Source: Astropecten irregularis
Taxonomy: Eukaryota > Echinodermata > Asteroidea > Paxillosida > Astropectinidae
Length of the DNA: 64,000 bases
Direction of reading: 5' to 3'
Assembly: GCA_963971285.1 (NCBI GenBank)
Contig: OZ020261.1
Location: forward strand, 1,488,001 to 1,552,000
Part shown: one piece after another, positions 17,586-49,419 of the stretch
Layout: the number at the start of each line of letters is the position of its first letter
How positions within the stretch are numbered: the stretch's first letter is position 1
Notes under the pieces: generated by a model
Database searches by the model: none
What the model saw: only the letters and a program-made list of their open reading frames with translations
Told to the model about the DNA's origin: nothing
Translations under genes and position numbers: made by a program

Positions 17586-18257
17586 TTAACGTACGACTTA
17601 TGCAGATATTAAAAAGGCTGAATACTTCATTTATAATACATAGAGGGCCCGAAATTTCAACCCTAGCAGGATTTTTCTCAGTTTGAGGGGAAATTAGTAT
17701 TGGCATAATGTGCTGGCATCACATCCCGATATTAAAGAGTGTTATATAGGCTCCCCCTTATAAGATGACGTAATGTTGAATTAACATTTAATATAGAACA
17801 TGCTATTATCTGAGAATTACTTTGGAGACTACTTTTGGGTCTGAGATATAGGCCTAACTGCTTAACAATGTGATGCAACAACTGCATGCTTGTAAATGCT
17901 TCATTATTGTCACTGCACAACTGCACAACTGACTGTGACTTTTGCAGAGATAAAGACGAATTAATGCTTAGAATATGGAGGGCTTGGCATTTCAATCCTG
18001 ACAGGTTGTTTCTCAAAGAAAAGAATGAACATATGATTTGGATGACATGCTGTTTAACAAGATAATGCATTGAATACAACATACATTATGCTGGACAGTG
18101 CATACTAAATATGCATCTTGCTCTCGTCTGGGAAATACGTACGTTTGGCCATCAGATCTGAGGTGATTTCCCCTTTGAAAAACTTCAAAGATTTAGACCA
18201 TAGCCACTGCTTTTAACAAGACGCACGTCCATCATAATTTAAAAAAATCTTATCTTC

Positions 18258-18442
18258 TCAACGTTTCGACTAGCCTGCTCTAATCCTCATCAGAGGACCA
18301 TAGAGCAGGCTAGTCGAAACGTTGAGACCTTACGAGAAGTACAAACTATATAGAAGTGCGAAAGTACGAATGATTCTTACATGGTGTTTCCGCAAACTGA
18401 TCCAAAACCAATTGTCACCATGCAAAGCCTCAAACCTTTCTT
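18258..18442. mobile_element. Foldback retroposon-like element with 12-bp target duplication
   Basis: 185-bp truncated member. The flanking repeat AATCTTATCTTC occurs at 18246-18257 and 18443-18454. The minus strand has CTGATGA at 18286-18292, then a GATTAG/CTAGTC hairpin and GAAAC. The right end reads CATGGTGTTTCCGCAAAC and continues to CATGCAAAGCCTCAAA, as in the copies at 34596 and 36349. Confidence 0.75.
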
Positions 18443-19264
18443 AATCTTATCTTCATCGATGACTTGTTTTCGAAAATGTTCATTGCTCAAATTAAAAGAC
18501 TGAAATAAATTCTTCTTCCAAATTTCTTTGAACCCTGAAAACCTGATAAAAAGCTGTGCTACCATTTTAGTGAAACACAATTTCAAGATGACTTTCAATT
18601 ATTTAGTAGCAGATGGAGGGGAATCGTCTAGTGAAAATAAAGGTGGTAGGGATTGGTTAATACGAACGGTTCCAGCATTAGAGCCATGATCTTAATTCAA
18701 ACCTTAAAGTTAAGCCATACTTAGGATTCAAAGATGAGCTTGATAAAGAGCTTAGTTAACAGGTTAAAAAAATCAGTTCCCGAGCACCACATGAAGAAAA
18801 TAGTGCACCAGAATCTTCATTGGTTCTGTTATTCTCCTGCTTCTACCTTCATCTTGCAACCACAAAGCACCTCATTTGAAATAAATATCAAACAATAAAT
18901 TCAATACTGATGGTTTGCGTCCTTGCGGAAGATGGGTGTAATGGCTGACAAAGGCATGTTCTTTACGGTCAGTGAAAACCATTTTCAGAGCGTGGGTGTT
19001 GCTAAAATCAATATAGCAGGGCAACAACAACTGAATGACTGAGCAGTGCGACTGTGAATTTCTATTTTTTTACTGACCAGCTTGAAAATACTAAAATACA
19101 TCAAATATGAAATACCAATCACCTTATAAAACTAAGGGGTATAATTGTAGGACTTTCTGAAGATTAAGACAACTAAAAGGGAAGAATACTTTTGTGAATA
19201 CTGAAATATGATATACAATAATAAATGCTAATTAGCCTACAATACTCCTTCCTGAATACCTTAA

Positions 19265-19619
19265 AGGTAGTATCATACTTCGGTTTTTGTCAAAGAAATA
19301 CAGATTCGTGGGCAAAAATATCAAGGAAGATACAATAACAGTCATCTGTGAAAATTTCAGTCCCATACGTTGCCCATTTTTGAGAAAACAGCGAAAACGG
19401 CCACAGTATATCTTAAGTCTTTTCTCTTTTATTTTTGATCTTTTAAAAGATCAAAAAGATTTTCGGTAGTTGTTTTACTAATTTCTGGATAAATACACCA
19501 TTTCAGGCGGAAACAAATTAACAGCATGTTTCTACCAGCACCATCTTCATACCCTTTAAGTTATACGTAAATCTGTGAACATTTCTGTTTTGGTATCTTA
19601 CCAAAGTATGATACTACCT
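19265..19619. mobile_element. AGGTA/TTAA family element (full)
   Basis: 355 bp with TTAA at 19261-19264 and 19620-19623. Ends are AGGTAGTATCATACTTCGGT and CCAAAGTATGATACTACCT, an inverted repeat of about 19 bp. It is one of the best preserved copies and shows the complete internal order of landmarks. Confidence 0.85.
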
Positions 19620-20398
19620 TTAAACCATAAAGTTGAGGTTGAGAGCTTGAAAGAAACGGGTCATGATGAATTGAAAAGATAACAGTACAGAAAATGTAGG
19701 TGTAACTTAAAAACTTACATAAGGAACTAATATCTACATAAACTTTGATTCGTAGTAACAACCACTTCAACAGACGTAAAGTAGTGAAACATCATTAATG
19801 GGTATATAAACTGGAATAGCTACGATAGACTTCAATATGGAAGAAAATGGGCAAGGTCACAAATCAACCCCATCCTATACCAAAGCAAGTTGAGGGTTGA
19901 GTTGAGTCTGTCCTTGGCTCTGGCATCGCATCGATATGCAGGCCTTACACAAGCTTGTGCTCTATAGGTTTCTGCCTCCTCGTCCTATTCTAATCATTTG
20001 CGTTGCATTTTGTTAATTATTGACTTGTTATGAAGACGAAAGACGAAATGAAATGAAAATAGACTCCCTTTTATGTATTGCATCCATGCAGTAGAAAGAT
20101 GTAACGGAAACAAAAGAATCATTCAAAGCTAAATATTATAAACATATGAGAAAGATGCAAGTTTGCTATGTTTTTTTGCGAGGAAATCAGAACAAGTACA
20201 AAGGACAACTCTTGCGGATGGATTCAGTGGAATTAACCTATACCTACAATATTAAACAGATAGCAAGGCGTTAACATGTACACAAGTATTGCATCATTTG
20301 TACAGGTTTGATCAGTGTGAGGTGAAACTGACTTAACAAGTCCTGCAACCAGTCCATGTAAATACTGCAATATTCTACAGAGTCTATCTTGTCGGTCA

Positions 20399-20590
20399 GA
20401 ATAAAGAATGGTTTTGATCTTACCCCGAAATCAAAACTGTTTTCGGTCATTGTTTGACTAATTTCTGAATAAATACACCATTCCAGACAGAAATATTTTA
20501 ACGGTGTGTTTCTACCAGCACCATCTTCATACCCTGAAAGTTGTACGTGAACATTGTTTGGGTATGTTACCAATCCTATACTGTAACTTT
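20399..20590. mobile_element. AGGTA/TTAA family, partial (second subfamily)
   Basis: Only the right half is recognisable: GGTTTTGATCTTACCCCGA, GAATAAATACACCATTCCAG and GTTTCTACCAGCACCATCTT. The GATCTTACCCCGA block marks a subfamily also seen at 33288 and 43447. Confidence 0.65.
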
Positions 20591-21660
20591 AATATACAAC
20601 TTTGTCATGACAAGAACTGAAGAATAAAAAAAACAAAAAACGGAGCAGGAATTTATAGTTATCTGTTGGGATGTAGTGTTTTGCTCTCTTGTGTGTAGGT
20701 GGAGAATTCTGTTTGCTGTAATTTGTTCAGGTCAGCGATATTAGGTTGAACCTTACCATTACAGCTAGCAAGGTAGGAAAAAATTTATTTTTCGTGGAAA
20801 TGGCCATTAAGGTGATTGATTTTTGTTGGCACTAAAAACGTGTGAGAACAGGTTGTACCTATACACGTAGATACATTTTATTAATAAAAATTTGTCATTT
20901 TCGTATTACGATTTGCAATGAAATCTTAAATCATTTCACAAATTAAATTCCATATGAAATATTACCAACAAAAACCAACACTGCTACAAGAACGAAATAT
21001 TTTCTAAAGGTAACTTCATATTTTGGTGTTGCATCTGAAAAAATGAATAAATAATAATAATAATGTATAACGCCAACAACTCGTACTTGTCTAGGTGTAG
21101 GAAGTGCGCAAAGATAGCAAATGCACACTTTGACATATGATGTGCACAATTTATTTGACTTGTATTCAAGTACTTGACAATTATTGATCAATAGTCCTCA
21201 ACAGACAGACTTCGTTTTGCAAAGTTGGAAGAAAATTGGAGATCCACTCATAAAATCTACATCTAACGTCATTTAATTAAAACAACACTATTATCTCCGA
21301 CCCATGAGTTCATAAGCAAGTACATTCACGCCATAGTATTTCTCAAAAAATCGTGTTCAAGAGAAGTTTGGATATGCTAGTTCTTTTCCCCTCAATAATA
21401 ATTCCCATTTCATCAGCAAAATAATGCAAGCTCCACACAAAGTAATACGATTTATTGACGAATATTGCACACACGGGGCAAACATGTCACGTTTCAGTAA
21501 TTCCCTACACAGCCTTGTGGCCTTATCGAGATGGACATTTCCAGAAAGATTAAAGGCAACCAGCTCGCTAGCAAATATCATAATCAATATTGCATATCAG
21601 TTGACCAATAGGAGCTGACTTTTTCTGGAGGAATAATGAATATTCATTACGTGAGCTCAA
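20591..21660. other. No gene seen
   Basis: About 1.1 kb of AT-rich sequence upstream of the FREP3 promoter. Frames of up to about 80 codons exist on both strands but show no domain, signal peptide or conserved pattern. No clear element ends were found. Confidence 0.5.
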
Positions 21661-21665
21661 GCTGT

Positions 21666-21732
21666 GATTGGTTCAACTCCAGCGATTTCATACACGTATA
21701 AACCATTAGACAAATGGGCTATGCAGTCAGTT
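21666..21732 (+). promoter_or_regulatory. FREP3 core promoter
   Basis: An inverted CCAAT box (ATTGG, 21667-21671) is followed by TATAAA at 21697-21702. An initiator-like TCAGTTC lies near 21727, about 30 bp after the TATA box. This predicts a leader of about 320 bases before the ATG at 22048. The TATA-to-ATG distance is almost that of FREP2. Confidence 0.6.
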
Positions 21733-21819
21733 CTCATCGCAATATTCAGACTGTGCGGACAGTGAAAATCAGTGAAAATCTATGACAGGACTGAAGACCA
21801 ACTGTTGTCTGGAGGAGTA

Positions 21820-21998
21820 GACACATGCTTTGAAATTCATTTCAAGGATTATCATTTGAAATCTTTCTGATTGACAGACGGTGTTTAAACTTATTTTCAA
21901 AGAATTTTCAGAAAGGATCATCATTTCATAGACACTTGCTTTGAAATTCATTTCAAAGAATTCTGAATAAGAATCTTTCTGATTGACAGACGGTGTGA
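21820..21998 (+). repeat. Imperfect direct repeat in the FREP3 leader
   Basis: Two copies (21820-21886 and 21930-21998) share AGACAC.TGCTTTGAAATTC, TTTCAA and AATCTTTCTGATTGACAGAC followed by GGTGT. They lie in the predicted 5' untranslated leader. A function is not evident. Confidence 0.7.
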
Positions 21999-22047
21999 AG
22001 ACATTAAATATCAAATTCAAACGATTGTGCTGTTGCTGATCTTCAAG

Positions 22048-23037
22048 ATGAGAGTCATCATTGCTTTCTTGTTTCTGACACTAATGGCTGGGGACTGCCA
22101 AGGGGAGTGTCCGGCTCGGTACACGCCCATGTATTACAAAGGCAACAATTTCACTTTGCAGCATAACGCGTATAAAGCAAAGACAACATCTTCGATGATT
22201 TGTGGCAGAGATTGCTCCATGGATCCCCAGTGTGTTTCGTTCAACTATCATGAGAGTAACCACTCCTGCGAAATGAACAATGCTCACAGAAGTATGGATT
22301 CCTGCAACTTTGTTTACAAACCAGGTAGTGCCTACTTTGACAATAACTATGAAACACCTCCATTTGCAGCATCATACCATGCTAAATACAAAAGCTGTCA
22401 GATGCTGCTTGAAGCTGGTCACCAGGAGGACGGCATATATACTATCTACCCTCATGGAATGAAAGATGGCATACAGGTGTACTGCGATATGAATACTACT
22501 GGTGGAGACTGGATAGTATTTCAGAGGCGTCAAGATGGTTCTGTTGACTTTTACCATGACTGGGCTGGCTACCAATCCGGATTCGGCGATTTAGCTGGTG
22601 AGTTCTGGCTGGGTAATGACAATTTGCGTGATATAACCTCTTGTGGAAAATTTGAGCTTAGGGTAGAGCTGGAGGATTGGGATGGGGGCAAAGTGTGGGC
22701 AGAATATGGTCAGTTTAAGGTCACAGGTGAGAAATACACACTCACTCTTGGCTCATATAATCGTTTGAGTACAGCAGGTAACTCAATGGCAGACATGAAT
22801 GGAATTCCATTCACAACAAAGGATCAGGATAATGATGGATGGGATGGTGAAAACTGTGCATATCGGTTTGGGCTAGGTGCCTGGTGGTTCACTTCAAAGT
22901 GCTCCAGCTGTGACCTCAATGTCAAATACAGTTGGTCCACCAAAGTAGGATTTGCACGCGGTATATACTGGTATCACTTCCATGGATTTTATTATTCCCT
23001 GAAGGCATGCAGCATGGAAATAAGGGAAGTTCTGTAA
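22048..23037 (+). CDS. FREP3: secreted apple-like + fibrinogen-domain protein
   Basis: Single-exon gene of 329 aa. The signal peptide covers residues 1-19 (MRVIIAFLFLTLMAG, ending CQG). The apple/PAN-like module covers 20-105 with Cys 21, 52, 56, 62, 74 and 86, the fullest set of the three. The fibrinogen domain spans about 116-329 (SCQMLLEAG, YCDMNTTGGDW, FQRRQDGSVDFYHDW, GEFWLGNDNLRD). Its calcium site DQDND (259-263) is followed by GWDGENCA with C270 intact. The second half is unusual: TSKCSSCDLNVKY has two Cys (285, 288) and NV where FREP1 and FREP2 have NG. C199 is extra. The start is the ATG at 22048, which opens the signal peptide; an in-frame GTG at 22027 is not used. AATAAA follows at 23141. 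Likely secreted recognition protein; ligand unknown. Confidence 0.93.
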   Translation: MRVIIAFLFLTLMAGDCQGECPARYTPMYYKGNNFTLQHNAYKAKTTSSMICGRDCSMDPQCVSFNYHESNHSCEMNNAHRSMDSCNFVYKPGSAYFDNNYETPPFAASYHAKYKSCQMLLEAGHQEDGIYTIYPHGMKDGIQVYCDMNTTGGDWIVFQRRQDGSVDFYHDWAGYQSGFGDLAGEFWLGNDNLRDITSCGKFELRVELEDWDGGKVWAEYGQFKVTGEKYTLTLGSYNRLSTAGNSMADMNGIPFTTKDQDNDGWDGENCAYRFGLGAWWFTSKCSSCDLNVKYSWSTKVGFARGIYWYHFHGFYYSLKACSMEIREVL

Positions 23038-23140
23038 ACAAAAGGTTTCTGAAAAAAAAATCAATCCTCTTTTCAATATTGGAATAATAATTTGAGACAA
23101 TTTCGTTTCAAATTTTGTTTACTGCTACCCATGGCAGTTA

Positions 23141-23146
23141 AATAAA
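23141..23146 (+). terminator. Poly(A) signal of FREP3
   Basis: AATAAA lies 104 bp after the FREP3 stop codon, close to the spacing in FREP1. It is inferred from position only. Confidence 0.5.
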
Positions 23147-23712
23147 CTAATTGAGTAATATAAAATAATTACTTTCATTGTTTTTATTAACAACAATTCA
23201 AATTTTAAGGGGATAAGACAATGATTTCTGAAGAAGTTGTTCAAATTGACAAAAAGGAAAACTTCTTGGTGTCTATTAGCTTAAATGTATTCTTGCGCTA
23301 GACTTATTTCATCTGAGGCCTAATATTCTTCTGTCTTGAAATATTCCTGTGAATTGTATTATGGATGGGGCATGACATGCTTCCATTTCAATGACTTCGT
23401 GATATCAAGTTATTCAGGCTCTCTCTGAAATATATTTCCGATTGTTTATCAACCCAAATCAATAAGGACATCATTTTCACATGTTGGGACACTAAAGAAT
23501 GAATTATTTTATTGGAGGCATGGCGTGTGAGGCATTATGCATGAAATGTTTTCTTTTAATTAGTAGTACAAGTGATTCTGTGTGTGTTCACATGTATAGT
23601 ACCTTATGTTTTTCGATTTACAAGGATTTATTTACATTCATTTGTCTAACTTAGATTTTAGGCTATAGCATGGCAGAAGTAGATAAAGTAATAGGTTTGC
23701 GGTAACACCATA
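23147..23712. other. FREP3 downstream DNA, no gene seen
   Basis: AT-rich sequence between the FREP3 3' UTR and the foldback element at 23713. It shows only weak resemblance to the first part of flank A, and no coding frame is supported. Confidence 0.5.
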
Positions 23713-23847
23713 TATCTATATCTTTTGTGAGTATGGGGCGGCTCTGAAATTCTTCATTCTCCTGAAGATGGCCAGAGCATGCTGGTCTAAACATCGAGTT
23801 AACCGGCTTTTTTCAGAGCCACCCCATACTCACGAAGAGATAAATAT
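23713..23847. mobile_element. Foldback element with CTGAAGA-hairpin-AAAC core
   Basis: The arms are GTGAGTATGGGGCGGCTCTG (23729-23748) and its near inverse CAGAGCCACCCCATACTCAC (23814-23833). The centre holds CTGAAGA (23762) followed by the hairpin GGCCAGAGCATGCTGGTC and TAAAC. This is the same shape as the cores at 18.3 and 34.7 kb, but the arm sequences differ. Confidence 0.65.
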
Positions 23848-24429
23848 AATGTCACAAGCTGTTGCCGCGAACCAATTGCTTTATTCATTTGCCTAGTTAT
23901 TAAACAGATTGGGCTTATCATACCTATTACAGAGTTGGATTTGATTTTTAATTTCAGAATCGGAAAAAAACATTGGGACATGGGTAAAATATGTATCATA
24001 GATTGATGAAATGCAATCTGTGTGTTTCTTGCTGAAAAACAGTATGCCTAAGTCATCAAGTATGCATAATCATTTGGAAAAGATACTCAACTTCATCCTG
24101 AAGATGGCCAGAGCATGCTGGTCTAAACATCGAGTTAACCGGCTTTTTTCAGAGCCACCCCATACTCACGAAGAGATAAATATAATGTCACAAGCTGTTG
24201 CCGCGAACCAATTGCTTTATTCATTCGCCTAGTTATTATACAGATTGGGCTTATCATACCTATTACAGAGTTGGATTTCATTTTTAATTTCAGAATCGGA
24301 AAAAAAACTTCGGGACATGGGTAAAATATGTATCATAGATTGATGAAATGCAATCTGTGTGTTTCTTGCTGAAAAACAGTATGCCTAAGTCATCAAGTAT
24401 GCATAATCATTTGGAAAAGATACTCAACT
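23761..24429 (+). repeat. Recent tandem duplication, 2 x ~336 bp
   Basis: 23761-24096 and 24097-24429 are nearly identical; I see only a handful of differences (for example ATTCATTTGCC against ATTCATTCGCC). The unit starts inside the foldback at 23713 and carries its core and right arm, so the second copy has the right arm without a left one. No coding frame is supported. Confidence 0.9.
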
Positions 24430-25549
24430 GTTTCACTGATTCCTGCTAAATGTAGCACATAATTGCGAATCATCTCTGCTGCCTAGAATTAAGAGCTATT
24501 AAGAGGAATTTCATTTTGACGGACATAGTTTGACAAAATAATAGAAGCAGGTGTACATTTTCTGAGACCAAAATCTGTCAAAATGAGTCAAAAGCAGCAA
24601 ATTGGCCAGACTGAAATATACACATGATCACAAATGGAAGACTGGAAATTTTGATTTGGTATATTTTATAAGAAGCCTTGTTTTGTGCTGTTGAGTTGTT
24701 AGTTTGAACATTCTGTTGAATATTTCTGATGGATACTTTGTGTATTAACAGCAAACACAGAGTGGGTCCAAAAACATTGATTTGATCAGATTTGTGATAT
24801 CAATTGTGATATTGTGATGTTATATAGATATACATGGTCACAAAAGTAAATAGTATGTGGAACTTGCTATCATGTATTGTTTGAATTCTGCGATATTACT
24901 CAGCGTATGCGTGATTTTAGAAATATTATTTGAAAACTGTATTTGTGACAGACTTATTTAAACTGTAGGTACATCATTGATCAATTCAAATATGAAAGAC
25001 AATTTTTCATTTTTTAAAAATGCAAGTCGACAAATTGATTAGTAAAATCTTTCCCATTGCTAATGATGTTTTCGGGAAACAAAAGATATTTGGCTTTCAG
25101 ACTGAAACTTAACAATTATTTTAATGATGTTGATCAATAATGTACCTTTAAGTACTCTGAGATGTAGTGACTTTGCTTATACATGATATTTGGTTAACAA
25201 AAATCAAGACACAAAATAATGATAATGCTAAAACTAGACTAATGCCCCTCACATTTGGAAAATAGTGAATTTTAGCTTGTGTTTTCTGACACAAGCTTTT
25301 TTGGATAACAGATAAAATACCCTGCACAATTAAAGGCAAGGGCATGACATCTGTAATGTTAGTAGACATGGAGGAAAATTAGTATAGCGTAACTGGAAAC
25401 GGTTACTTGAGTATTGTTTCAATATTGTGATACACGTAATGTGAGTTGGTGAAATAATTGAGTATATTTCCCCTCTTTTTTTAACTCAATTGAATTTGTA
25501 GGCTTTGAAAATATTTTATGAAATGTAATAACCATTTAACAATTTTTTA

Positions 25550-26598
25550 TCAATGATGGATCCAAGTTTTCAAGATGCTATCTCTTGTGTCTTTGAGCAA
25601 CATTGTGTAGACAGCCTTCTTGAATATAATTCGAAATATTCGAATGCAACCTACAGAAGGGTGTGTTGTTAGGGTCAATGTTGAAATACATGAAGTGACA
25701 GTATCTTTAATTTTAAAATTTGAATGAAAGAGACAGCAAAAAATTGAAAAGCATTTGTTTCCATTGCTTCATATGGAATGAAATTTAAACAAAAATTGAT
25801 GAAAAGGGAAAATGAAAGCCCTCATAGTTTGCATCCATCAATGAATAAATAATAATTGTCGTTTTTCTGAATTACTTTTAATTATCGTAGTGGTATATAC
25901 TTATTAATTATTAAATAATATTCGGCCGTACGCAATGCTAATTCCAGAAGTAGCACATAGGTTGCTTTTTTTTTCTTTTTCAAAAGACAATACAGTATTT
26001 TGAGATAATACTACTAAACAATGACTCTTACTGAGCATTATTTCACATTGATTAAAAAAAAAATGCAACGAACGTTTTCAATGAACTCTTATCTACATTT
26101 GGGCAGACACTGGACGATGATCTCTGAAATCCTCCATTGAAAATCCCTTTTCATTAAAGAGAAATCCTGAGCAGTTCATGAAAAACAAGACCTAACTGTT
26201 TTTGTTACAATGCTCGAAGATTTACAGTTATCATAATTATCAAACGTTTACAATTTTAAATGGCCCTTAAGATTTTACCATAAAGAATTGAAATATTAAT
26301 TCCTTGATAATAGTTAGATATTTTAATTAAATGTTTATCAAATTTTATTACTTTCAGTTTTTTAATCAATGATGGATCCAACATTTTACTGTGCTATCTC
26401 AATGTTATTTTGAATAATTAAGGAGAACTGTTTTTGAAACTCACGAGATAATTTTTTTTCTGAAAAAAAAAGAGGAAGAATATTTATGGTGATTCTGCTA
26501 AAAAAAAGTCTGAAAAATTTGTTTGAAAAATACACAAAAGAAAATTGCTCTAAGTTGAAGATGTGCAAAGGAATACACTTTGGATCGATCAATGATTA
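25550..26598. repeat. Four-motif inverted module, copy C1
   Basis: Motif copies lie at 25550 (+), 25829 (-, TTGCATCCATCAATGA), 26366 (+) and 26579 (-). Plus copies are again followed by GCTATCTC. Spacing matches copies A and B. Confidence 0.8.
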
Positions 26599-27032
26599 AC
26601 ATTTATATGTATATCAGTGTGAAAAAAAAATGAATGTTAACTGTTTTTATGTAACAAATACCACAAGTTCACGTTCCTGGAATTGATGTTAACCAATGCT
26701 TAAATTTGGGTGAAAAGATCAAGGCACAAACTAATAACTCACATTTGAAAAAAAGTGAATATCCTGAATTTACTCAAGCTTTGTTGGATGACAAATAAAA
26801 TACCTTGCAGAATTAAAGGCAAAGACATGATATCTGTACTGTTAGTAGACATGGAGGAACATTAGTATACCATAACTGGAAACGGTTACTTGAGTATTGT
26901 CTCAATATTGTGATACACGTAATGTGAGTTGGTGAATTAATTGAGTACATTTTCCTTCTTTTTTCAATTCAATTGAATGTGTAGGCTTTGAAAATATTTG
27001 ATGAAATGTAATAACCATTTAGCAATTTTTAA

Positions 27033-28064
27033 TCAATGATGGATCCAAGTTTTCAAGATGCTATCTCTTGTGTCTTTGAGCAACATTGTGTAAAGAGCCG
27101 TCTTGAATATTATTCGAAATATTCGAATGCAACCTACAGAAGGGTGTGTTGTTAGGGTCAATGTTAAAATACATGAAGTGACAGTATCTTTAATATTAAA
27201 ATTTGAATGAAAGAGACAGCAAAACATTTAAAAGCATTTGTTTCCGTTGCTTCATATGGAATGAAATTTTAAAATAATTGATGAACAGGGAAAATGAAAG
27301 CCCTCATAGTTTGCATCCATCAATGAATAAAACATAATTGTCGTTTTTTCTGAATTACTTTTAATTATCTTTGTGGTATATACTTATTAATTATTAAATA
27401 ATATTCGGCCGTATGCAATGCTAATACCAGAAGTAGCACATAGGTTGTTTTTTCTGTTTTCAAAAGACAATACAGCATTTGAGATAATACTACTAAACAA
27501 TGACTCTTATTGGGCATTGTTTCACACTGATTTTAAAAAAATGCAACGAACGTTTTCAATGAACTTTTATCTACATTTTGGCAGACAGATGATATCTGGA
27601 CGATTATGTCTGAAATCCTCCAGTGAAATTTCCCTTTTCATTAAAATGAAAACAAGACCTAACTGTTTTTGTTACAATGATCGAAGATTTACAGTTATCA
27701 TAATTATCAAACGTTTACAATTTTAAATGGCCCTTAAGATTTTACCATAAAGAATTGAAATGTGAATTCTTTGATAATAGTTAGATATTTTAATTAAATG
27801 TTTATCAAATTTTATCACTTTCAGTTTTTTTAATCAATGATGGATCCAACATTTTATTGTGCTATCTCATTGTTATTTTGAATAATTATGAAAAACTGTT
27901 TTTGAAACTCCCGGGATAATTTTATTCTGAAAAAAAAGAAGAAGAAGATTTATGGTGATTCTGCTAAGAAAAAGTCTGAAAACATTGTTGGAAAAATGCA
28001 CAAAATAAAATTGCTCTTAGTTGAAGATGTGCACAGGAATACACTTTGGATCGATCAATGATTA
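27033..28064. repeat. Four-motif inverted module, copy C2
   Basis: Motif copies lie at 27033 (+), 27311 (-), 27833 (+) and 28046 (-). It is offset from C1 by about 1483 bp and much closer to C1 than to A or B, so C1 and C2 arose by a later tandem duplication. Confidence 0.8.
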
Positions 28065-28871
28065 ACATTTATATGTATATCAGTGTGAAAAAATTGAATG
28101 TTAAATGTTTTTATGTAAGAAATACCACAAGTCCACGTTCCTGGAACTGATGTTAACCAATGCTTAAACTACTGACAATTGTCTGTATTGCCAGATACCC
28201 ATTTTATATTGAGTTCTTCAAACACTGAAAATATATCAGTAACTCGCCTTTCAAATAGAAGCTTAAAATGTTGGATTAAAACCTTGTTACCGTTGAAGAA
28301 TCCATGCCTTATGAAAACCTAAGTTGAAGTATGATACACACAATTTTCAGTCCTTATGTACAGACGAGGTTGTATGTTATTAGCTTCATAATATTACTAA
28401 CGAATGACAGTTAACAGTTAACATTAAACAATGAAGAATTATAAAAAATAAATATGATGTGAAAATACTTTTACTTAATAGCAAATCCATGTCACTTACA
28501 TATTTTGATGATTCTATATCAATTTTTTCTCTCAAACTTTAAAGTTTTTATTGAAATTTCCCTTGTACCCCAAAAATATGTTATGAAAAGACAAATCTGA
28601 ATTACTGTACTGATTTGTAAAATGATGGATATTTTTGAATAAATGAAGCATTTTAGTGAGTGGTAAAAAAAAGTATAACATTTTGACCTTTTTGTTTGTC
28701 TGTGTGTCCGTGTTAATACGTATATAGGCCTATTCATTATTTACTTTGCATGCTTCACATTTTGGGTGTTGCTAAAGATGGAAAAGGTTGTTATTATGCA
28801 GGCTTAACTCTGCCAATACACTTTCAGCAGTGGTGACAACATTTTACCAGAGGAACAGAATCATCTTTTAC

Positions 28872-30110: not shown

Positions 30111-30537
30111 CTTAACGTTTTGGTTTGAGCCCGAACGGAGTTGCAACTGGGGCTTATTAAAGAACTTTACTACTACACGAATTACAAGTACGAGTACGAA
30201 CTAACCTTCAACATTCGCCGTGTTAATGCCGTCGGAGAAAACATCGGGAAAGTAGTTCTTGTCGTTGTTACCCAATACACCAGTCTGTGATGAGATGCAC
30301 AAATCATAAGGATGGAAAACTCATAATACGTCCCACTTGCATTCAATTGTCTTCCTAATATTGCTTTATATACTAAGCACAGTCAATTTCTTCCTCCATG
30401 ATTTCACACACTGTCGATTAGTCAAAGCGGCGACGGATTGGCGCCCTCAAGAGTAATCAAAGCGTGCTATCGCCTCAAGCAGCGCCCTCATTTGAAAGGA
30501 CGTGAGCTCTATTAGTTGCCCTGGTTTTTATTATGAC

Positions 30538-30782
30538 TGGAGCCTTTCTCAAAGCTCGGCTCCGGCTGTAGCTCCAGCTCCGGCTCCATTTCGTTAACCA
30601 ATTCTAAAATAACTGGTATCAAAACAGAGGCTTTTGGCTGCAGTTCGGAAGTAGATTCTCTGGTTTGAAAAAGAAAACAGAGCTTCAGCTTCAATGAAAA
30701 ACCACAACCTATATTTTCAGCATGGATGACAGAGACGTAGCCGAAACCTGAGCCGGAGCCGAGGTTTGGAAAAGGACCCTGG
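30538..30782. mobile_element. GGCTCC-ended inverted-repeat element
   Basis: About 245 bp. The left end is CCTTTCTCAAAGCTCGGCTC and the right end GAGCCGAGGTTTGGAAAAGG. Inside, the conserved words are CAGAGCTTCAGCTTCAATGA and ACAACCTATATTTTCAGCAT. It is related to copies at 35240, 37310, 39207, 42520, 49401 and 49736. Confidence 0.75.
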
Positions 30783-31669: not shown

Positions 31670-31671
31670 AC

Positions 31672-32110
31672 CGAACCTCGTTAATACGAACTCTCTTAAG
31701 AGGAGATCCCGCTTAAGACGAGCATATTGCGCCGGTCCCGACCGAGTTGTGCACTTTTCTATGGGGATATATTTGCCTCATATGAGCACTGATAATACGG
31801 AAAACCTAATACGAGCTTTTTTGGTTGTCCCAGTTGCGTGAAAGTCATTGTAAACAACCCATTTAGTGTAAATTTTTAGTAGTTGTATCAGGGTTCTTGG
31901 TCATCTTATTTAGGACACACGATTCTCGTAGTATAACGCAAAATCTCGTTTGCCAATTATTAGGCACACTGAATTTCCTAAGCAACTGACGTGACTTTGA
32001 GAGTGAAGTCAGTTTTGATATATCGTTCAGCATTTCCTCAGCAAATAGAAATAAATGCCGTGTTTGGCTGCATTTCATCAAGGAGTGACAATAATGCATA
32101 AGTGGCCGTG
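31672..32110 (-). mobile_element. pogo/Tigger-like DNA transposon, 3' remnant
   Basis: Read on the minus strand, the end carries AATACGAGCT, CTCGTCTTAAGCGGGATC and GAGTTCGTATTAACGAGGTT. These tandem CGTATTA/CGTCTTA words are typical of pogo/Tigger-type termini. Just inside (31863-32099, minus) is an open frame with AEEMLNDISKLTSLSKSRQL, compatible with the poorly conserved transposase C-terminus. The catalytic part and the other end were not found. The family call rests on the terminus. Confidence 0.4.
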
Positions 32111-33283
32111 ATTTTCAGTGTAGCATCCGAGGTTTTCAAGCAAAATTAGATCAAATTTTGACTTCTTTTTGATTTCGGTTGGCTGTGCTTGCTTTGGTGC
32201 GGGAAAAACTGTCCAGGGTTTATACGCATGTAATTGTAAGGGAGTCATGCATTTAATGGTGTATAGTCACCTGGTACAATCCTACCATTGTTACATGATG
32301 GGCTCCAAAGTGGAACTAACATATGGCCACTTATATGTTCAATATAATATCAAATCATAATAAAGCCAATTTGGTTCAAAAAGTTCAGTTTCGCAACTCT
32401 ACCTCCTCCACTGAGCATTCAAGCACGCCCTCTATCGCTCACTGTAGCACCAGCTCTCTCATAATCCTCCAAGCACACTCATCCATTCCACAAGAACCCA
32501 TCCAATAACCATGCATCTTATATCAGCCCCCGTTCACCGGCTTGCATTTAATCTTAATGGCTCTTGCTAAGGACGAGTTTGTATGCATTCCTTTCGAATA
32601 TCACATTGTAGACCGACGTCCAACCTAGCCGTAGCCATAACTTGTTACTGTTTAGTTAAGGCTTGCTCTTCACTGACGTCTTTCAATTCCAGTTCTAGTG
32701 CTTTGAGGACCACGAACAACAACAAACGTGCTGGCTTGTGGGAAGTTTTAACGCACGATCATACTGCATATAAATGCAAACTGTAAAGATGACTTACCAA
32801 CTAAACACCAAGCTGGTGTCATAGGGTTGATTCCAATCCTGCCGCCATTGGACTTAATTTGTATCTGACATTATACATGCTTCAATCTTCAAGAAACTGC
32901 ACTAGTATTGCCACCATATTAACACACTAACAATGTGGCAGTGCACAAGGAAGAACTACTAACTGGCAAGCACACACGTATATATGCTGGCATATATGCA
33001 GTGTAGCAATCCAACAATACAATTAATTGTATGACCAATTAATGTAATGCATGTGTAACCACGCACTATTGAATCTGAGATTATTCAGGATACGCTGGCG
33101 ATAGAGCACATCTTTGTGCAGCGTATAGCGTAGTTGGCAGGGCAATGATTATGTCTATTGGTAACCAGCGGTAGAGCACAGTCAGGGGACCAGGCGATTT
33201 GCCACACAGCGTTTCATACCCGTCTTCTTTGTTAGCAGTATGAAGTATATCTTCATATTTAGCAACCCATTTGGGAATATCTC
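32111..33283. other. No gene seen
   Basis: Mixed-composition DNA with several frames of 60-110 codons and no recognisable domain. The end (33085-33240) contains words such as CCAGCGGTAGAGCAC that look like repeat-derived sequence, but a family could not be assigned. Confidence 0.4.
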
Positions 33284-33287
33284 TTAA

Positions 33288-33652
33288 AGGTATAATACAT
33301 GATTGGTAAAGGTCAAAGAACAACATCCACACTTTGTCTAACTCAACATAATACATAAATAACACACCTGTGAAATTTTGACTTCGATCGGACATCTGAG
33401 TCATGAGAAAATAGCGAAAAACCAACTCAATTCTTGTTATAAATCATGACTAAGAATGGCTTTGATCTTACCCCGAGATAAAACCTGATCAAAACTGGTC
33501 TTTGTTTAACAAATTTCTGAATAAATACAACATTTCATGCGGAAATATTTTAACGGTATGTTTCTACCAGCACCATCTTCATACCTTGAAAGTTAAAGAT
33601 ATATTTGTGGGCATTTTTGTGGGCATATATCTGTCGAGTATGTTATATACCT
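33288..33652. mobile_element. AGGTA/TTAA family, second subfamily (full)
   Basis: 365 bp between TTAA at 33284-33287 and TTAA at 33653-33656. It begins AGGTATAATACATGATTGG and ends TGTTATATACCT. Its left half differs from the main family, while the right half keeps GAATAAATACAACATTTCAT and CACCATCTTCATACC. Confidence 0.8.
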
Positions 33653-33656
33653 TTAA

Positions 33657-33864
33657 GGCCTTTTCACACGACGCTAAAAGCTCTCAACCATTGAGAAATT
33701 CTCTCATGGGTCTGGACCTCGGTCAAAATATCTCAAGGATTCACGAGGGACGTGGATGGGTCACTCTCAAGCATTGGTGTCCTTACACACGATGACACTT
33801 TTGTAAGATTTCGCACCCATGAGAGAATTTCTGCGAGTTTTTCTTAGCGTCGTGTGAAAGGGCC
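33657..33864. mobile_element. GGCC/TTAA inverted-repeat element
   Basis: 208 bp, with ends GGCCTTTTCACACGACGCTA and TAGCGTCGTGTGAAAGGGCC. It lies between TTAA at 33653-33656 (shared with the neighbouring AGGTA element) and TTAA at 33865-33868. TTAA target duplications are the hallmark of the piggyBac superfamily. Confidence 0.85.
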
Positions 33865-34583
33865 TTAATATTTAATGGACATTTAGGGTGACATCATCAT
33901 AAAACTCTCCCAATTTGTTAATGCATTGCACAGCAAAACCTACTGAATGGCTCTTTAGTTTTTGGTGACTTATGCCTCATTTCGTCCTGGTTGGACCACA
34001 TTATACTTTAAAATAACAGTAATCAATGATATTGCTCAAACCGTTCTTTAGTTCGCCCTTTTTTTGTTAATATGTAGCCTACGCAACATGACGCTTTTGA
34101 TCATGATCGCTGAGACATATTCAAGTTATTAATAAACATAGGTGTAGGCTGTGGAATTTATCACAGGTTTTGCGATTTGTTTGCACGGTTGAGGTAATAC
34201 ATAACATTGCAGTGACAAGATAAAACTGTTCATTTCAGCGGTCACTAAAAGTTATTTATACACAACAATCTTTCATTTTAGAGGCATTTTATGTCGAATG
34301 GCAGTGTCATTGGGCAGGAGAAATCGCTCCACAGGCAGGCGATGTGTCTTCAGAAATATGCAGCGAAATTTAGACCCTGTCGTGAAATCAATCAGGAGAT
34401 TGGAAAAAAGGGCAAGGATTTTTTGCGAAGTCGATGCCCATGATATAAACACGATGGATCGAGTGGCACATTGACATTTGTGGATCGCTAACAGAAAGTC
34501 ACAGGAAGAAACTTGTCAATGTTTGTAAGTTCTGCACCAAATCACACAAATCGGATAAGCCGAGTAACCCTTATTTTGTAGAA
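33865..34583. other. No gene seen
   Basis: About 0.7 kb without a supported gene. 34290-34570 is somewhat richer in GC and has short open frames, but no splice-flanked pattern or domain could be recognised. Confidence 0.4.
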
Positions 34584-34595
34584 TCTAGATCAATA

Positions 34596-34904
34596 TCATG
34601 TGGATCGGTTTGCGGAAAAAAACATGTAAGAATCGTAAGTTCGTACTTTCGCAATTCTATTTCGTTCGCACTTTTCGTAGGGTCTCAACGTTTCGACTAG
34701 CCTGCTCTAGTCATCATCAGGATACTCCAGAAGACTCCTTATGGGTCTCCTGATGACTAGAGCAGGCTAGTCGAAACGTTGAGATAGACCTTACGAGAAG
34801 TGCGAACGAAATAGAAACTTCTGCGAAAGTACGAACAATTCTTACATGGTGTTTCTGCAAACCGATCCACATACCATTTGTCACCTTGCAAAGCCTCAAA
34901 TCTG
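34596..34904. mobile_element. Foldback retroposon-like element, longest copy, 12-bp target duplication
   Basis: 309 bp flanked by TCTAGATCAATA at 34584-34595 and 34905-34916. The two arms run from TGTGGATCGGTTTGCGG and from its inverse at the right. Both arms carry the core: on the plus strand CTGATGA at 34750, hairpin CTAG-AGCAGG-CTAG, and GAAAC at 34773. The right end extends beyond the arm to CACCTTGCAAAGCCTCAAA. The long, variable-site target duplication indicates target-primed insertion rather than cut-and-paste. Confidence 0.8.
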
Positions 34905-35239
34905 TCTAGATCAATAAATGTCAAAGAAAGGTTAGCTGCTGGTTTTGTGTGTTGATTGTGTACATCTTCTTTGAAGCAAAGTTATAAATAAGGTTTAAAT
35001 TATAAATATGGGATACACCATACATTATTATAACAGCAAATTGATCATCCTGACACATTCCACTGGATTTGGCAAAAACAAATGGATATCATATTTTTAC
35101 ATTGGCATGCAAACTCTTCTCTAGCACAAATTTCCTTCTTGTACGCTCCATAAAGTTTACTTCATTTACTGCATTCCCATATGCTCTCTGCTATTTTCTT
35201 TCTCCCAGGGCCAAATTGACGCCTAGTCATTACTCTCTA

Positions 35240-35485
35240 AAGAGCGACCTCTGCAAGAGGCTCTCTGCAACGAGCTCAGGCTGCGGATCCGACTCCATTT
35301 CGTGAGTCCATTCTAAAATAACGGATATCAAATTAGAGGCTTTTGGCTGCTGCTGCGGTTTGAAAGTAGATAGAAAATAGAGCTTCAGTTTCAATGAAAA
35401 CACACAACCTTTATTTTCAGTATAATTAGGACAGAGACGAAGCCGGAGCCGGAGCCTGAGCCGATCGAGCTTTGGGAAAGGCCCC
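35240..35485. mobile_element. GGCTCC-ended element, worn copy
   Basis: Internal landmarks AGAGCTTCAGTTTCAATGA and ACAACCTTTATTTTCAG, and the right end GAGCCGATCGAGCTTTGGGA, match the family. The left end is eroded (GAGCTCAGGCTGCGG). Confidence 0.65.
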
Positions 35486-35560
35486 ATGTTGCAGGTTGCC
35501 TGATGAAGGCTAGCAGTTCCAGCAGCCGAAACGTCGCTACCAGCAACACTACAACGCGTG
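35486..35560 (+). repeat. CTGATGA-hairpin-GAAAC motif, isolated copy
   Basis: CTGATGA at 35500-35506 is followed by a GGCT...AGCC hairpin and GAAAC at 35528-35532. The flanks GTTGC (35495) and GCAAC (about 35544) could pair around it. A frame crosses it, but no protein is claimed. Confidence 0.5.
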
Positions 35561-35780
35561 ACATTGATCACATTTTTCCTTATCTACTGATTAAGAATAA
35601 CCTTTCCCGTTCTATTTACATAGTGGTCCTCATTCACCAAGAAACCCAAATCTTTCATTTTACACACAAAGTATACTGGACAGGGAGTTTGCTTGCCCAT
35701 CATGACCTAGTCATTGACCCTAGTGGAGTACATGTAGGATGTCGGTACCACTGTCCAGATTGAGAAGTTGTGGAATCTGG

Positions 35781-35913
35781 GGTTGATTTCACAAAGCCCT
35801 ACGATCGATCGTAACTCGAGTGACGAAGTTTAACCCATCGTATCCTACGTAGGGCTGCAATGCATCAAGCCCTACGATTGATAGAATGTTACGACGAGTT
35901 TGGTGTAATCTAC
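35781..35913. mobile_element. ACGATCGATCGT foldback element
   Basis: Short element with ends GGTTGATTTCACAAAGCCC and GTTTGGTGTAATCTAC and internal CCTACGATCGATCGTAACTC and CCTACGTAGGGCTGCAATGC. The same family occurs at 46431, 53112, 56806 and 63563. Confidence 0.75.
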
Positions 35914-36016
35914 TTCAATTGGCTTGGTGGTTAGGATAAAGTCAATTGACGTTAGACAGTTGCTGCTTACACGGTCACAAAACTAAGAGCTATGAGCTGA
36001 GACATTTTCTCAGAGC

Positions 36017-36264
36017 TTAGACAAGTGGCGTGCCGGACTTAGATGCGTTGTTGTTGTTGGTGCCGTTGGTCTTGGGGAGTTTGGATAGTTGTAGGTACTC
36101 CGTGCTGTGATCGTGAGAGCGGAAATCAGTCGTCTGACTGGCCCCGTTGTTACCGTGACGGGCCGTGGTGACATCCCGGCACTGGTGGTATGACTTACGT
36201 CTGTCTGGCACGCTCACACAGGGACAACAGGAGAAGGCCCGCTGAAACTCCTTCCTGAAGCGAG
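36017..36264 (-). CDS. Orexin-type GPCR, last exon (helix 8 and C-tail)
   Basis: Final exon of the minus-strand receptor. The acceptor CTCTGCAG lies just before CTCGCTTCAGG. The exon opens with two bases completing the codon after NFLS, then reads RFRKEFQRAFSCCPC, a typical helix 8 with palmitoylation-type cysteines, as in orexin receptors. The cytoplasmic tail of 81 residues is rich in Ser, Thr and Asn and ends SGTPLV with TAA at 36017-36019. Length 248 = 2 + 82x3 fits the phase of the preceding exon. An AGGTA-family element lies in the intron 34 bp upstream. Confidence 0.85.
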
Positions 36265-36297
36265 CTGCAGAGACCATCAAAGACACAAAGATAATGA

Positions 36298-36760
36298 AGG
36301 TGGTAGGCCTATCATACTTTGGGTTTTTGTCAAAGAAATGCAGGTTCAAGAAAAATTTGAGGCTTTGCATGGTGACAATTGGTATGTGGATCGGTTAGTG
36401 GAAACACCACGTAATATTCGCAATTTGAGACCTAATTGCGAGAAGTGCGAACGATATAGAAGTGCGAAAGTACGAACGAATATTACATGGTGTTTCCACA
36501 AACCGATCCACATAAATGCAGGTTCACAGGCAAAAACTATCCAGTAAGAGACGGTGACAGTCATCTGTGAAATTTCAAGTCCCATAAAGGAGAAAACAGT
36601 GAAAAACGCAGTAGCGTAGACACGTAATCAGACTTGGAGGTATGATCCTGTAGCTGGGTCGTACTTCCATATACGTTTGTGCACAAATACATAGATACAT
36701 GTAAGTTATAAATAAATCTGTGAAGATTTCTGTGTGGGTATGTTACCAATCCTGTACCTA
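36298..36760. mobile_element. AGGTA family element interrupted by a foldback
   Basis: The left part (36298-36348) and right part (36514-36760) belong to one AGGTA-family copy: ATCATACTTTGGGTTTTTGT, ACAGTCATCTGTGAAATTTC, AAATCTGTGAAGATTTCTGT. It lies in the last intron of the receptor gene. The interrupting element is listed separately. Confidence 0.75.
36349..36513. mobile_element. Foldback retroposon-like element nested in an AGGTA element, 13-bp target duplication
   Basis: 165 bp flanked by AAATGCAGGTTCA at 36336-36348 and 36514-36526. The duplicated 13 bases belong to the host element, so the duplication is unambiguous. The left end is the inverse of the constant end of the 34.6-kb copy (TTTGAGGCTTTGCATGGTGA), and the right end stops at CCGATCCACAT, where the other copy's short arm also stops. 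The CTGATGA core is absent. Confidence 0.85.
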
Positions 36761-49286: not shown

Positions 49287-49400
49287 CTGTGATGAAGAGA
49301 TAGACACCAAAGATGGGTCATTGTCAATCGCGAGTAACAGTTCGAGAAAAAATGGCGCCAGTTTTAACATAAGCCGCTTATGGATTTCACAAAACACCTG

Positions 49401-49419
49401 GGGCATTTCTCAAAGCTCA

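What the first reader, a model, noticed from the sequence alone, without database searches (positions are those of the whole stretch)
18246..36526. Foldback elements with 12-13 bp target duplications: a retroposon dressed as a palindrome
Three related copies (18258-18442, 34596-34904, 36349-36513) each have an exact flanking repeat: AATCTTATCTTC, TCTAGATCAATA and AAATGCAGGTTCA. In the third, the duplicated bases belong to a host AGGTA element, so the duplication is certain. One end is constant (CATGCAAAGCCTCAAA side) and the other varies: two copies stop at CCGATCCACAT, one is truncated further in. DNA-transposon foldbacks have fixed short duplications. Duplications of 12-13 bp at unrelated sites with one-sided truncation are what target-primed retroposition gives, as known for Penelope-like elements. 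A non-autonomous, self-complementary retroposon of this kind would be unusual.
Basis: partly seen in the sequence, partly recalled or inferred. Interest (0 to 1): 0.8.

Follow-up and report, generated by a model that had tools for sequence, protein, structure and literature searches.

The report
Foldback Penelope-type retroposons with hammerhead motifs
Short self-complementary repeats in an animal-like genome look like protein-less relatives of Penelope retrotransposons: they carry a hammerhead-ribozyme-like motif, their ends match the places where a Penelope enzyme is known to start copying, and two older copies also carry a histone-mRNA-like hairpin.

Summary
The three foldbacks lie exactly where stated, with exact 12, 12 and 13-bp flanking duplications. 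For copy 3 the joined flanks align across the join with six undisturbed relatives of the host repeat, which have the duplicated stretch once, in diverged form. Two older relatives (50206-50495; about 23680-23900) also fold back: 5 of 5 copies.

Arms follow the layout of a Penelope-like element (PLE) pLTR: minimal hammerhead-like motif, CATGGTG...CACCATG hairpin, tail of about 32-36 nt. In the Anolis PLE PAc, reverse transcription starts at two sites that bound such a tail, and both target strands are extended. The "constant end" is the tail; the end CCGATCCACAT fits the tail-less start site rather than a truncation. Inverted pLTRs with one tail are published, so this is a new variant of a known kind. 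No recognisable PLE gene was found (50 of 60 ORFs scanned), and no genome was available.

Unexpected: both older copies match the histone-mRNA 3' stem-loop (Rfam, 36.1 bits above threshold, 29.7 below).

The parts
18246..18257 (.). left target duplication of copy 1, AATCTTATCTTC (second copy 18443-18454)
   Evidence: exact 12-bp repeat
18258..18442 (+). copy 1: left (inverted) arm, hinge, right arm, tail
18262..18293 (-). minimal hammerhead-like motif of the copy-1 left arm, CTGATGA-G-GATTAG/agcagg/CTAGTC-GAAACGTT
   Evidence: descriptor scan; Rfam Hammerhead_3 only 19.6 bits against gathering 48.5
18407..18442 (+). tail of copy 1 (about 36 nt; start set by alignment with copies 2 and 3)
   Evidence: alignment, positions
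18380..18422 (+). CATGGTG ... CACCATG stem enclosing site 1 (copy 1)
   Evidence: sequence; predicted fold
34584..34595 (.). left target duplication of copy 2, TCTAGATCAATA (second copy 34905-34916)
   Evidence: exact 12-bp repeat
34596..34904 (+). copy 2: two long arms, hinge, tail 34873-34904 (32 nt)
34689..34720 (-). minimal hammerhead-like motif of the copy-2 left arm, full core
34750..34778 (+). hammerhead-like motif of the copy-2 right arm, 3 nt shorter in the core than the left arm
36336..36348 (.). target duplication of copy 3, AAATGCAGGTTCA (second copy 36514-36526), inside a dispersed host repeat
   Evidence: empty-site alignment
36349..36513 (-). copy 3: foldback without hammerhead motif; tail 36349-36383 (35 nt), outer left end ATGTGGATCGG at 36513
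50206..50495 (+). copy c50: older relative, near-continuous palindrome; flanks 50194-50205 CGAAATAAACTA / 50496-50507 CGAAATACACTA
   Evidence: nhmmer; duplication 11 of 12; fold
50344..50375 (+). hammerhead-like motif of c50 (GGAACG in place of GAAACG)
50234..50278 (-). histone-mRNA 3' stem-loop match in the c50 left arm, element sense (right-arm copy 50385-50429 +, 25.9 bits)
   Evidence: Rfam RF00032 36.1 bits, gathering 34
23680..23900 (+). copy c23 (limits approximate): older relative, asymmetric hinge, no duplication found
23762..23793 (+). hammerhead-like motif of c23 (TAAACA in place of GAAACG)
23800..23845 (+). histone-mRNA 3' stem-loop match in c23, below the curated threshold
   Evidence: Rfam RF00032 29.7 bits (gathering 34), E 6.7e-7 in 221 bases
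24096..24429 (+). second copy of a 336-bp direct duplication that holds the right arm of c23 and sequence 3' of it
   Evidence: 97-98% identity

Best explanation
These are short retroposons made of the hammerhead-to-tail segment (about 120-165 nt) of a Penelope-like pLTR, most likely copied in trans by a Penelope-like enzyme. Proposed steps: an RNA with the order hammerhead, hairpin, tail is bound by the PLE protein. The endonuclease nicks both target strands 12-13 bp apart. One 3' end primes reverse transcription at the tail end of the RNA (site 2). The other 3' end primes a second cDNA of the same kind of RNA at site 1, before the tail. The two cDNAs run toward the RNA 5' end and join, often at short self-complementary sequences in or near the hammerhead, giving a head-to-head foldback with a tail on one side only. 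Repair of the stagger gives the 12-13-bp duplication. Shown by sequence: duplications, empty site of copy 3, foldback, one-sided tail, hammerhead-like motif. Inferred: the PLE enzyme, the RNA intermediate, the two start sites here, and two-sided priming. Copy 1's left arm starts 2 nt past the predicted hammerhead cut, which could mean a cleaved RNA served as its template (one case only).
For: Duplications of 12, 12 and 13 bp and an 11-of-12 match, with the empty site aligned for copy 3. All 5 copies fold back with the same polarity; the tail is on one side in the 4 copies where a tail was recognised. CTGATGA..GAAACG: 4 matches in the window, 0.03 expected. CTGANGA-N-6 bp-6 nt-6 bp-GAAACG in copies 1, 2, c50, c23 with 0, 0, 1 and 2 core changes; stem II pairs in 30 of 30 cells, changes on both sides at 2 of 6 pairs (limits below). 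PAc has the same extra nucleotide and a 6-bp stem II in its printed sequence, read by eye. PAc order: hammerhead cut after +29, CAUGGCC +50-56, GGCCAUG +94-100, AAAGCC +101-106, then an RT start at +111-118 (paper). Here: cut, CATGGTG, site 1, CACCATG, AAAGCC, and the element ends 13, 9 and 12 nt after AAAGCC in copies 1-3 (PAc +111-118 is 5-12 nt after it). Tails about 36, 32, 35 nt; the paper gives 30-40 bp and says the tail is the stretch between the two start sites. PAc cuts and extends both strands in vitro. Rotifer Pen2a_Av: inverted pLTRs, 31-bp tail on one, 9-bp duplication.
Against: No RT or endonuclease hit in the 50 of 60 ORFs of 85 aa or more that were scanned, so the partner is inferred. 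Rfam hammerhead models do not reach threshold (19.6 of 48.5 bits for copy 1; no hammerhead row for copies 2, 3, c50, c23). The rows were picked by a descriptor that demanded a paired stem II and left out the copy-2 right arm, so 30 of 30 is partly built in; in its shuffle control 88 of 500 reached the number of pairs with two-sided change, 14 of 500 the covariation score, 2 of 500 the percentage paired. Alignment to the PAc tail region is weak: shuffles as good in 31/500 (c1), 219/500 (c2), 11/500 (c3), 488/500 (c50), 416/500 (c23). The hairpin is predicted for c1, c3 and c50 (c50 only in the longer fold), not for c2, and not seen in c23. The position of PAc's second start site was not in the text I saw. 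Palindromic hinges in c1, c2, c50 and the likeness of arms within a copy also fit self-priming. c23 has no duplication; copy 3 has no hammerhead. In PAc, hammerhead mutants did not change insertion, the hammerhead cut only with protein present, and no reads ended at the cut.
Confidence: 0.78

Rival explanations
1. Same element and enzyme, but the inverted arm arises by snap-back: the first cDNA folds back on a short hairpin near the RNA 5' end and copies itself, rather than by a second priming on the other strand.
For: Predicted hinge loops of 4, 4 and 6 nt in copies 1, 2 and c50; in copy 3 the arms are 56 nt apart with a 6-bp hairpin and 8-nt loop in that gap, a tight hinge only if the right arm has lost sequence. 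Arms within a copy are 94-100% identical in c1, c2, c3, c50 (25 to 127 aligned bases, gaps left out, 17 in c2) against 87.5-94.4% between arms of copies 1-3. Arkhipova et al. inferred self-priming from palindromes at inverted Penelope junctions (PMC3846280).
Against: Snap-back copying should be able to run on through the tail toward the target. Instead the left arm stops at or near site 1 in copies 2, 3 and c50 and includes the tail in none of them. The c23 arms are 61 nt apart with the hammerhead only in the right arm.
Confidence: 0.35
2. A foldback or MITE-type DNA transposon with long inverted repeats.
For: Inverted repeats dominate each copy; outer left end alike in two copies.
Against: The right end extends 32-36 nt beyond the inverted repeat in copies 1-3, so there are no matching termini. 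The left end differs in copy 1. Hinges differ. Motifs follow the PLE order. No transposase domain in the 50 ORFs scanned.
Confidence: 0.07
3. A metazoan retrozyme: a small hammerhead element that spreads through circular RNA.
For: Small element with a type I-like hammerhead motif and duplications longer than 4 bp (PMC7229834 passages). c23 is followed by a 336-bp direct repeat.
Against: Published retrozymes are described as tandem copies with classical type I hammerheads. Here the arms are inverted, and the motif is of the minimal PLE kind, below Rfam threshold. The 336-bp repeat is 98% identical and runs past the arm, so it reads as a local duplication.
Confidence: 0.06
4. A LINE-driven SINE with 5' inversion by twin priming.
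For: Twin priming also gives inverted 5' parts flanked by target duplications (PMC2837659 abstract in the listing).
Against: No poly(A) or simple-repeat 3' end and no tRNA gene in the window (ARAGORN). The order of motifs is that of PLEs.
Confidence: 0.05

Closest known systems
Rotifer Penelope families Pen2a_Av / Pen3a_Av (PMC3846280, passages)
   Same: inverted pLTRs, mostly head to head, a 31-bp tail on one inverted pLTR, duplications of 8-10 bp, palindromes at the inverted junction, other sequences captured between pLTRs with duplications
   Different: those copies carry the RT-EN ORF or a captured gene; here only pLTR arms are left and duplications are 12-13 bp; the word hammerhead does not occur in that paper's main text
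Anolis Poseidon element PAc (PMC11167929, parts 1-3 of 4)
   Same: hammerhead with an extra nucleotide before a 6-bp stem II, then CAUGG..CCAUG, AAAGCC and an RT start; tail of 30-40 bp between two start sites
   Different: PAc is autonomous and tandem, and its ORF starts in the hammerhead. Here copy 2 has an ATG at that place but a stop after 5 codons, copy 1 has AGG, c50 ACG; c23 has the ATG with 42 open codons, which 182 of 2000 shuffles also give
Metazoan non-LTR retrozymes (PMC7229834, PMC7761336, passages)
   Same: small non-coding hammerhead retroelements, for which PLEs are named as likely mobilisers
   Different: tandem, circular-RNA based, classical type I hammerheads
Dispersed minimal type I hammerheads of animal genomes (PMC7761336, citing Cervera and de la Pena 2014, which I could not read)
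   Same: minimal hammerheads in non-coding DNA, in some cases in PLE pLTRs
   Different: the passages I read do not describe their host elements; foldbacks such as these may be some of them
Short, nonautonomous Penelope elements of heliconiine butterflies (PMC6685494, passage)
   Same: short non-autonomous PLE relatives
   Different: only named in the passage seen; no structure given

Membership tests
Penelope-like elements (autonomous) | single ORF with telomerase-like RT and (in canonical PLEs) GIY-YIG endonuclease | tested here: not met
   no RT or GIY-YIG hit in the 50 of 60 window ORFs scanned, three of which overlap copy 3
Penelope-like elements (pLTR features) | minimal type I hammerhead in the pLTR | tested here: inconclusive
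   motif layout in 4 of 5 copies, stem II kept (rows partly selected for it); Rfam models below threshold; cleavage not tested
Penelope-like elements (pLTR features) | 30-40-bp tail on one end only | tested here: met
   about 36, 32 and 35 nt on one side of copies 1-3
Penelope-like elements (pLTR features) | inverted head-to-head pLTR arrangement | tested here: met
   5 of 5 copies
Penelope-like elements (pLTR features) | hairpin at the RT start sites as in PAc | tested here: inconclusive
   7-bp CATGGTG/CACCATG stem predicted for copies 1 and 3 (one G-U pair in copy 3) and for c50 in the whole-arm fold but not the shorter one; one mismatch and not predicted in copy 2; not seen in c23
Penelope-like elements (pLTR features) | target duplications of variable length, 8-10 bp in rotifers | tested here: met
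   12, 12, 13 and 11-of-12; none found for c23; wider ranges for other PLEs are recalled
Metazoan retrozyme | tandem units with classical type I hammerhead and circular RNA | tested here: not met
   arms inverted, not tandem; hammerhead below Rfam threshold; circular RNA not testable here
Foldback / MITE DNA transposon | matching terminal inverted repeats at both ends | tested here: not met
   right end extends 32-36 nt past the repeat in copies 1-3
Histone-type 3' end signal (RF00032) | stem-loop scoring above Rfam's gathering score | tested here: met
   36.1 bits (gathering 34) in the c50 left arm; 25.9 in its right arm and 29.7 in c23 are below it; pattern GGYYYTNNNNARRRCCACM 3 matches against 0.02 expected, two of them the 336-bp duplicate
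Histone-type 3' end signal (RF00032) | cleavage with SLBP and U7 snRNP | not testable with these tools
   a GAAGAGA stretch lies 13 nt after the stem in c50 and c23; its reading as a U7 site is recalled, not tested

The most novel reading that the evidence does not exclude
A lineage of Penelope-type retroposons carries in its pLTR, downstream of the hammerhead, a histone-mRNA-type 3' processing signal (stem-loop plus a U7-like purine stretch). PLE transcripts would then end like replication-dependent histone mRNAs, without poly(A) and in S phase, while reverse transcription starts internally at the upstream pLTR, and the DNA record of insertion is a two-sided TPRT foldback.
Probability: 0.25. 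Interest if true: 0.8.

Novelty: new variant of a known kind. Interest (0 to 1): 0.5.

Why it matters
How Penelope-like elements insert is still open: two start sites, extension of both strands and a one-sided tail are known, but the later steps are, in the words of the PAc paper, yet to be validated. Short foldbacks with intact target duplications and an empty site are simple in vivo records of that reaction. Collected genome-wide they would separate two-sided priming from snap-back. They may also be carriers of some of the minimal hammerheads reported as scattered in animal non-coding DNA. The histone-type stem-loop in two older copies, if functional, would be a new way for a retroelement to form its RNA 3' end.

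Tried and rejected
Looking for copies outside the window gave nothing: no genome is held for it, and three pattern scans returned 0 stretches (23-base exact pattern in viral contigs; degenerate 22-base pattern in viral contigs, and genome contigs). So copy number, end clustering and the autonomous partner were not tested beyond 64 kb.

Rfam rows for microRNA families over the foldbacks are below their gathering scores and I take them as the hairpin shape. The loose hammerhead descriptor also hits chance sequence: 0-4 hits in each of 10 Markov-shuffled windows against 7 in the window, of which 5 belong to this family; 23228 looks like chance. The motif at 35500 has another stem (4 bp, 12-nt loop) and sits just outside another dispersed repeat, so I did not count it as a copy. 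I did not count 24096-24429 as an independent copy, being part of a local duplication.

I tested whether the arms are relics of PLE coding sequence, since c23 has an ATG where the PAc ORF starts. It did not hold: the c23/c50 peptides in that frame score 36 (3 of 1000 shuffles reach it), but the two other matched frames score 41 and 38, so this is DNA likeness, not coding; c23 and c50 against the PAc peptide are no better than shuffles (170 and 332 of 1000); a 42-codon open frame arises in 182 of 2000 shuffles.

I considered that palindromic hinges prove snap-back, and rejected it as proof: two like cDNA ends can also join at self-complementary stretches. Copy 1's left end as use of a hammerhead-cleaved RNA stays a remark (one case).

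ORF scan: 50 of the 60 stop-to-stop frames of 85 aa or more went to Pfam. Ten were left out: six low-complexity frames at 40.7-41.5 kb, 49234-49617, and three antisense frames of the fibrinogen genes. Besides Fibrinogen_C, PAN and 7tm (with weaker GPCR models on one 7tm frame), only sub-threshold rows appeared (zf-CCHC_6 0.049, DUF4410 0.0032, DUF3094 0.093).

Literature: ten searches. 'histone stem-loop' with 'Penelope' gave 0 papers, with 'retrotransposon' 0 papers; the phrases are narrow, so this is weak evidence of absence. Phrases for non-autonomous Penelope or PLE, pLTR-only or solo pLTR gave 2 papers.

Papers seen: PMC11167929, parts 1-3 of 4; passages only of PMC3846280, PMC7229834, PMC6155905, PMC6431247, PMC7761336, PMC6685494; PMC2837659 in a listing. 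Not held and not read: PMC8557442, PMC2377424, PMC4209133 (also asked by DOI), PMC5785218.


Full report
What is there. The window is eukaryotic by content: frames with PAN plus Fibrinogen_C domains and rhodopsin-type GPCR exons. No genome is held for it. Inverted arms: copy 1, 27 nt at 100%; copy 2, six segments between 34598 and 34872 at 85-100%; copy 3, 38 nt at 95%.

The duplication in copy 3 is a true target duplication. Joining its two flanks, with one AAATGCAGGTTCA, gives a sequence that aligns across the join with six other places in the window: 16887, 19271, 29976, 44242, 53280 and, over 37 bases only, 48605. In the alignment all six have the matching stretch once, with some substitutions; the exact 13 bp occurs nowhere else in the window. 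They belong to a dispersed repeat of about 370 bp. The joined flanks of copies 1 and 2 matched only themselves, so their duplications rest on exact 12-bp identity; 0 of 200,000 random 12-mer pairs were identical.

More copies. A profile of six half-arms finds older relatives. With eleven arms in the profile, the next hit outside them has E 0.8. c50 (50206-50495) is a near-continuous palindrome with a possible 12-bp duplication, CGAAATAAACTA / CGAAATACACTA; its score of 9.5 lies between the 95th (9.0) and 99th (11.0) percentile of 200 random flank pairs, whose maximum was 20, so it is suggestive only. c23 (about 23680-23900) has no detectable duplication. A profile of the two c50 arms finds c23 at E 8.5e-12 and copies 2 and 1 at about 1e-4, so the groups are related. 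A 336-bp local duplication (23760-24092 / 24096-24429, 98%) repeats the right half of c23. All 5 independent copies are foldbacks, and no further solo arm was found at that sensitivity.

Anatomy of an arm, read in the sense that puts the tail at the 3' end. First comes a motif CTGANGA, one nucleotide, a 6-bp stem with a 6-nt loop, then GAAACG. It is complete in the left arms of copies 1 and 2, has one change in c50 (GGAACG) and two in c23 (TAAACA); the right arm of copy 2 is 3 nt shorter in the core, and copy 3 lacks the motif. The stem is kept in 30 of 30 cells, with changes on both sides at 2 of 6 pairs; the short outer stem TCTC/GAGA is kept in 75% of cells. Limits: five rows, two of them copies of one locus, chosen by a descriptor that demands the stem; 88 of 500 shuffles reach the count of two-sided pairs and 14 of 500 the covariation score. 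Rfam's hammerhead models do not reach threshold (best 19.6 of 48.5 bits). The Anolis element PAc, whose hammerhead was tested biochemically, has the same extra nucleotide before a 6-bp stem II in its printed sequence (read by eye).

Second, a stem CATGGTG ... CACCATG spans the position where the left arms of copies 2 and 3 begin (CCGATCCACAT). It is predicted for copies 1 and 3 and for c50 in the whole-arm fold though not in the shorter one; copy 2 has a mismatch and c23 shows none. Third, the tail: CACCATGCAAAGCCTCAAA and a few more bases, ending at the duplication. In PAc, computed on the printed sequence, the order is hammerhead core -5 to +1, GAAACGUC to +29, CAUGGCC +50-56, GGCCAUG +94-100, AAAGCC +101-106. 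The paper places the commonest RT start at +111-118, reports two adjacent start sites, and says that the stretch between them is the PLE tail, an optional 30-40-bp extension. The place of the second site was not in the text I saw; 30-40 bp upstream falls in the loop of that stem (inference). Here the right ends lie 13, 9 and 12 nt after AAAGCC in copies 1-3, and the tails are about 36, 32 and 35 nt. Plain alignment with PAc is weak: 31, 219, 11, 488 and 416 of 500 shuffles do as well for c1, c2, c3, c50 and c23. The argument is one of shared order, spacing and short motifs, not of alignment score. A test for relic coding sequence was negative.

How it works. The right end is read as reverse transcription started at the tail end. 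The left end in copies 2 and 3 (and, by eye, within roughly 10 nt in c50) is read as the tail-less start site. PAc protein cuts and extends both strands of a target in vitro, and the RT start does not appear to differ between strands. Two cDNAs primed 12-13 bp apart on opposite strands, one from each start site, would give this product: head-to-head arms, tail on one side, long duplication. I rate this as the likeliest route, but not by much over snap-back of a single cDNA. Predicted hinge loops are 4, 4 and 6 nt in copies 1, 2 and c50. In copy 3 the arms are 56 nt apart, with a small hairpin in the gap; in c23 they are 61 nt apart. Arms within a copy are 94-100% identical in c1, c2, c3 and c50 (88% in c23), gaps left out, against 87.5-94.4% between arms of copies 1-3. 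These facts fit snap-back, and Arkhipova and co-workers drew that conclusion, on an antisense template, for rotifer Penelope. Two-sided priming can also give them if cDNA ends join at self-complementary stretches and both templates come from one source. The stop of the left arm before the tail is what tips me to two-sided priming. In copy 1 the left arm instead starts 2 nt past the predicted hammerhead cut. In PAc the hammerhead was not needed for insertion in vitro, cut only when protein was added, and no RNA-seq reads ended at the cut.

Is it a Penelope-like element? It lacks the defining ORF, so it is not filed as one; it is a non-autonomous element that works like a PLE pLTR and was probably moved by a PLE enzyme. 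The partner was not found: 50 of 60 frames of 85 aa or more gave no RT or GIY-YIG hit, and scans of the viral and prokaryote collections gave 0 matches, as expected for an animal repeat.

An unexpected part. The only Rfam hit in the window at curated threshold is the histone-mRNA 3' stem-loop at 50234-50278 (36.1 bits, gathering 34, E 7.9e-7). It lies inside the left arm of c50, in element sense; the right-arm copy scores 25.9. c23 has its own, 29.7 bits, below threshold, E 6.7e-7 in 221 bases. Between c50 and c23 the stem differs by a paired change (GGU..ACC to GGC..GCC). A consensus pattern finds three matches in the window against 0.02 expected; two of the three are the 336-bp duplicate. 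A GAAGAGA stretch follows the stem by 13 nt in both; that this resembles a U7-binding element is my recollection. Copies 1-3 gave no Histone3 row. c50 and c23 are related, so the two matches are not independent. Function is untested. The cut expected from histone biology (recalled) would remove the downstream tail, so it could not serve the same arm as template; in a pLTR-ORF-pLTR transcript it could form the 3' end in the second pLTR.

Novelty. Inverted pLTRs, one-sided tail and duplications are in print (PMC3846280), minimal hammerheads in PLEs and scattered in animal genomes are in print (PMC7761336), and short non-autonomous Penelope elements are named (PMC6685494). An element reduced to hammerhead-hairpin-tail arms that folds back in every copy seen here, with an empty site, is a new variant as far as the ten searches show. 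I found no report of a histone-type stem-loop in such elements (narrow phrases).

Noticed in passing
50234-50278 (-), 50385-50429 (+), 23800-23845 (+): Matches to the histone-mRNA 3' stem-loop (Rfam RF00032; 36.1, 25.9 and 29.7 bits, gathering 34) inside both older foldbacks, in element sense, with a GAAGAGA stretch 13 nt downstream; no such row for copies 1-3.
   Followed up: partly
35500-35533 (+): Another hammerhead-like motif (CTGATGA-A-GGCT..AGCC-GAAACGTC) at the edge of a different dispersed repeat (35273-35487, relatives at 30571, 37311, 39208, 49502, 49731); the frame through its ATG is open to 35760, with no Pfam hit.
   Followed up: partly
23760-24092 and 24096-24429: 336-bp direct duplication, 98% identical, covering the right arm of c23 and sequence 3' of it.
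   Followed up: partly
301-1341, 8672-9679, 21967-23034 (+): Three single-frame genes with PAN plus Fibrinogen_C domains, about 71% identical at DNA level.
   Followed up: no
16881, 19260, 29965, 44231, 48604, 53265 and others: Dispersed repeat of about 370 bp (the host of copy 3), copies in both orientations, pairs at about 69-86% identity.
   Followed up: no
54565-55044 and 55865-56344: 480-bp repeat 99.8% identical, 1.3 kb apart, with an older relative at 45645-46079.
   Followed up: no
49420-49524: (GCTCCG) tandem array, 17.5 copies, 97% matches, next to a GPCR exon; similar hexamer stretches occur at 30.5, 35.4 and 39.2 kb in a shared repeat family.
   Followed up: no
25248-26704 and 26738-28168: Direct duplication of about 1.45 kb at 90.5% identity.
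   Followed up: no
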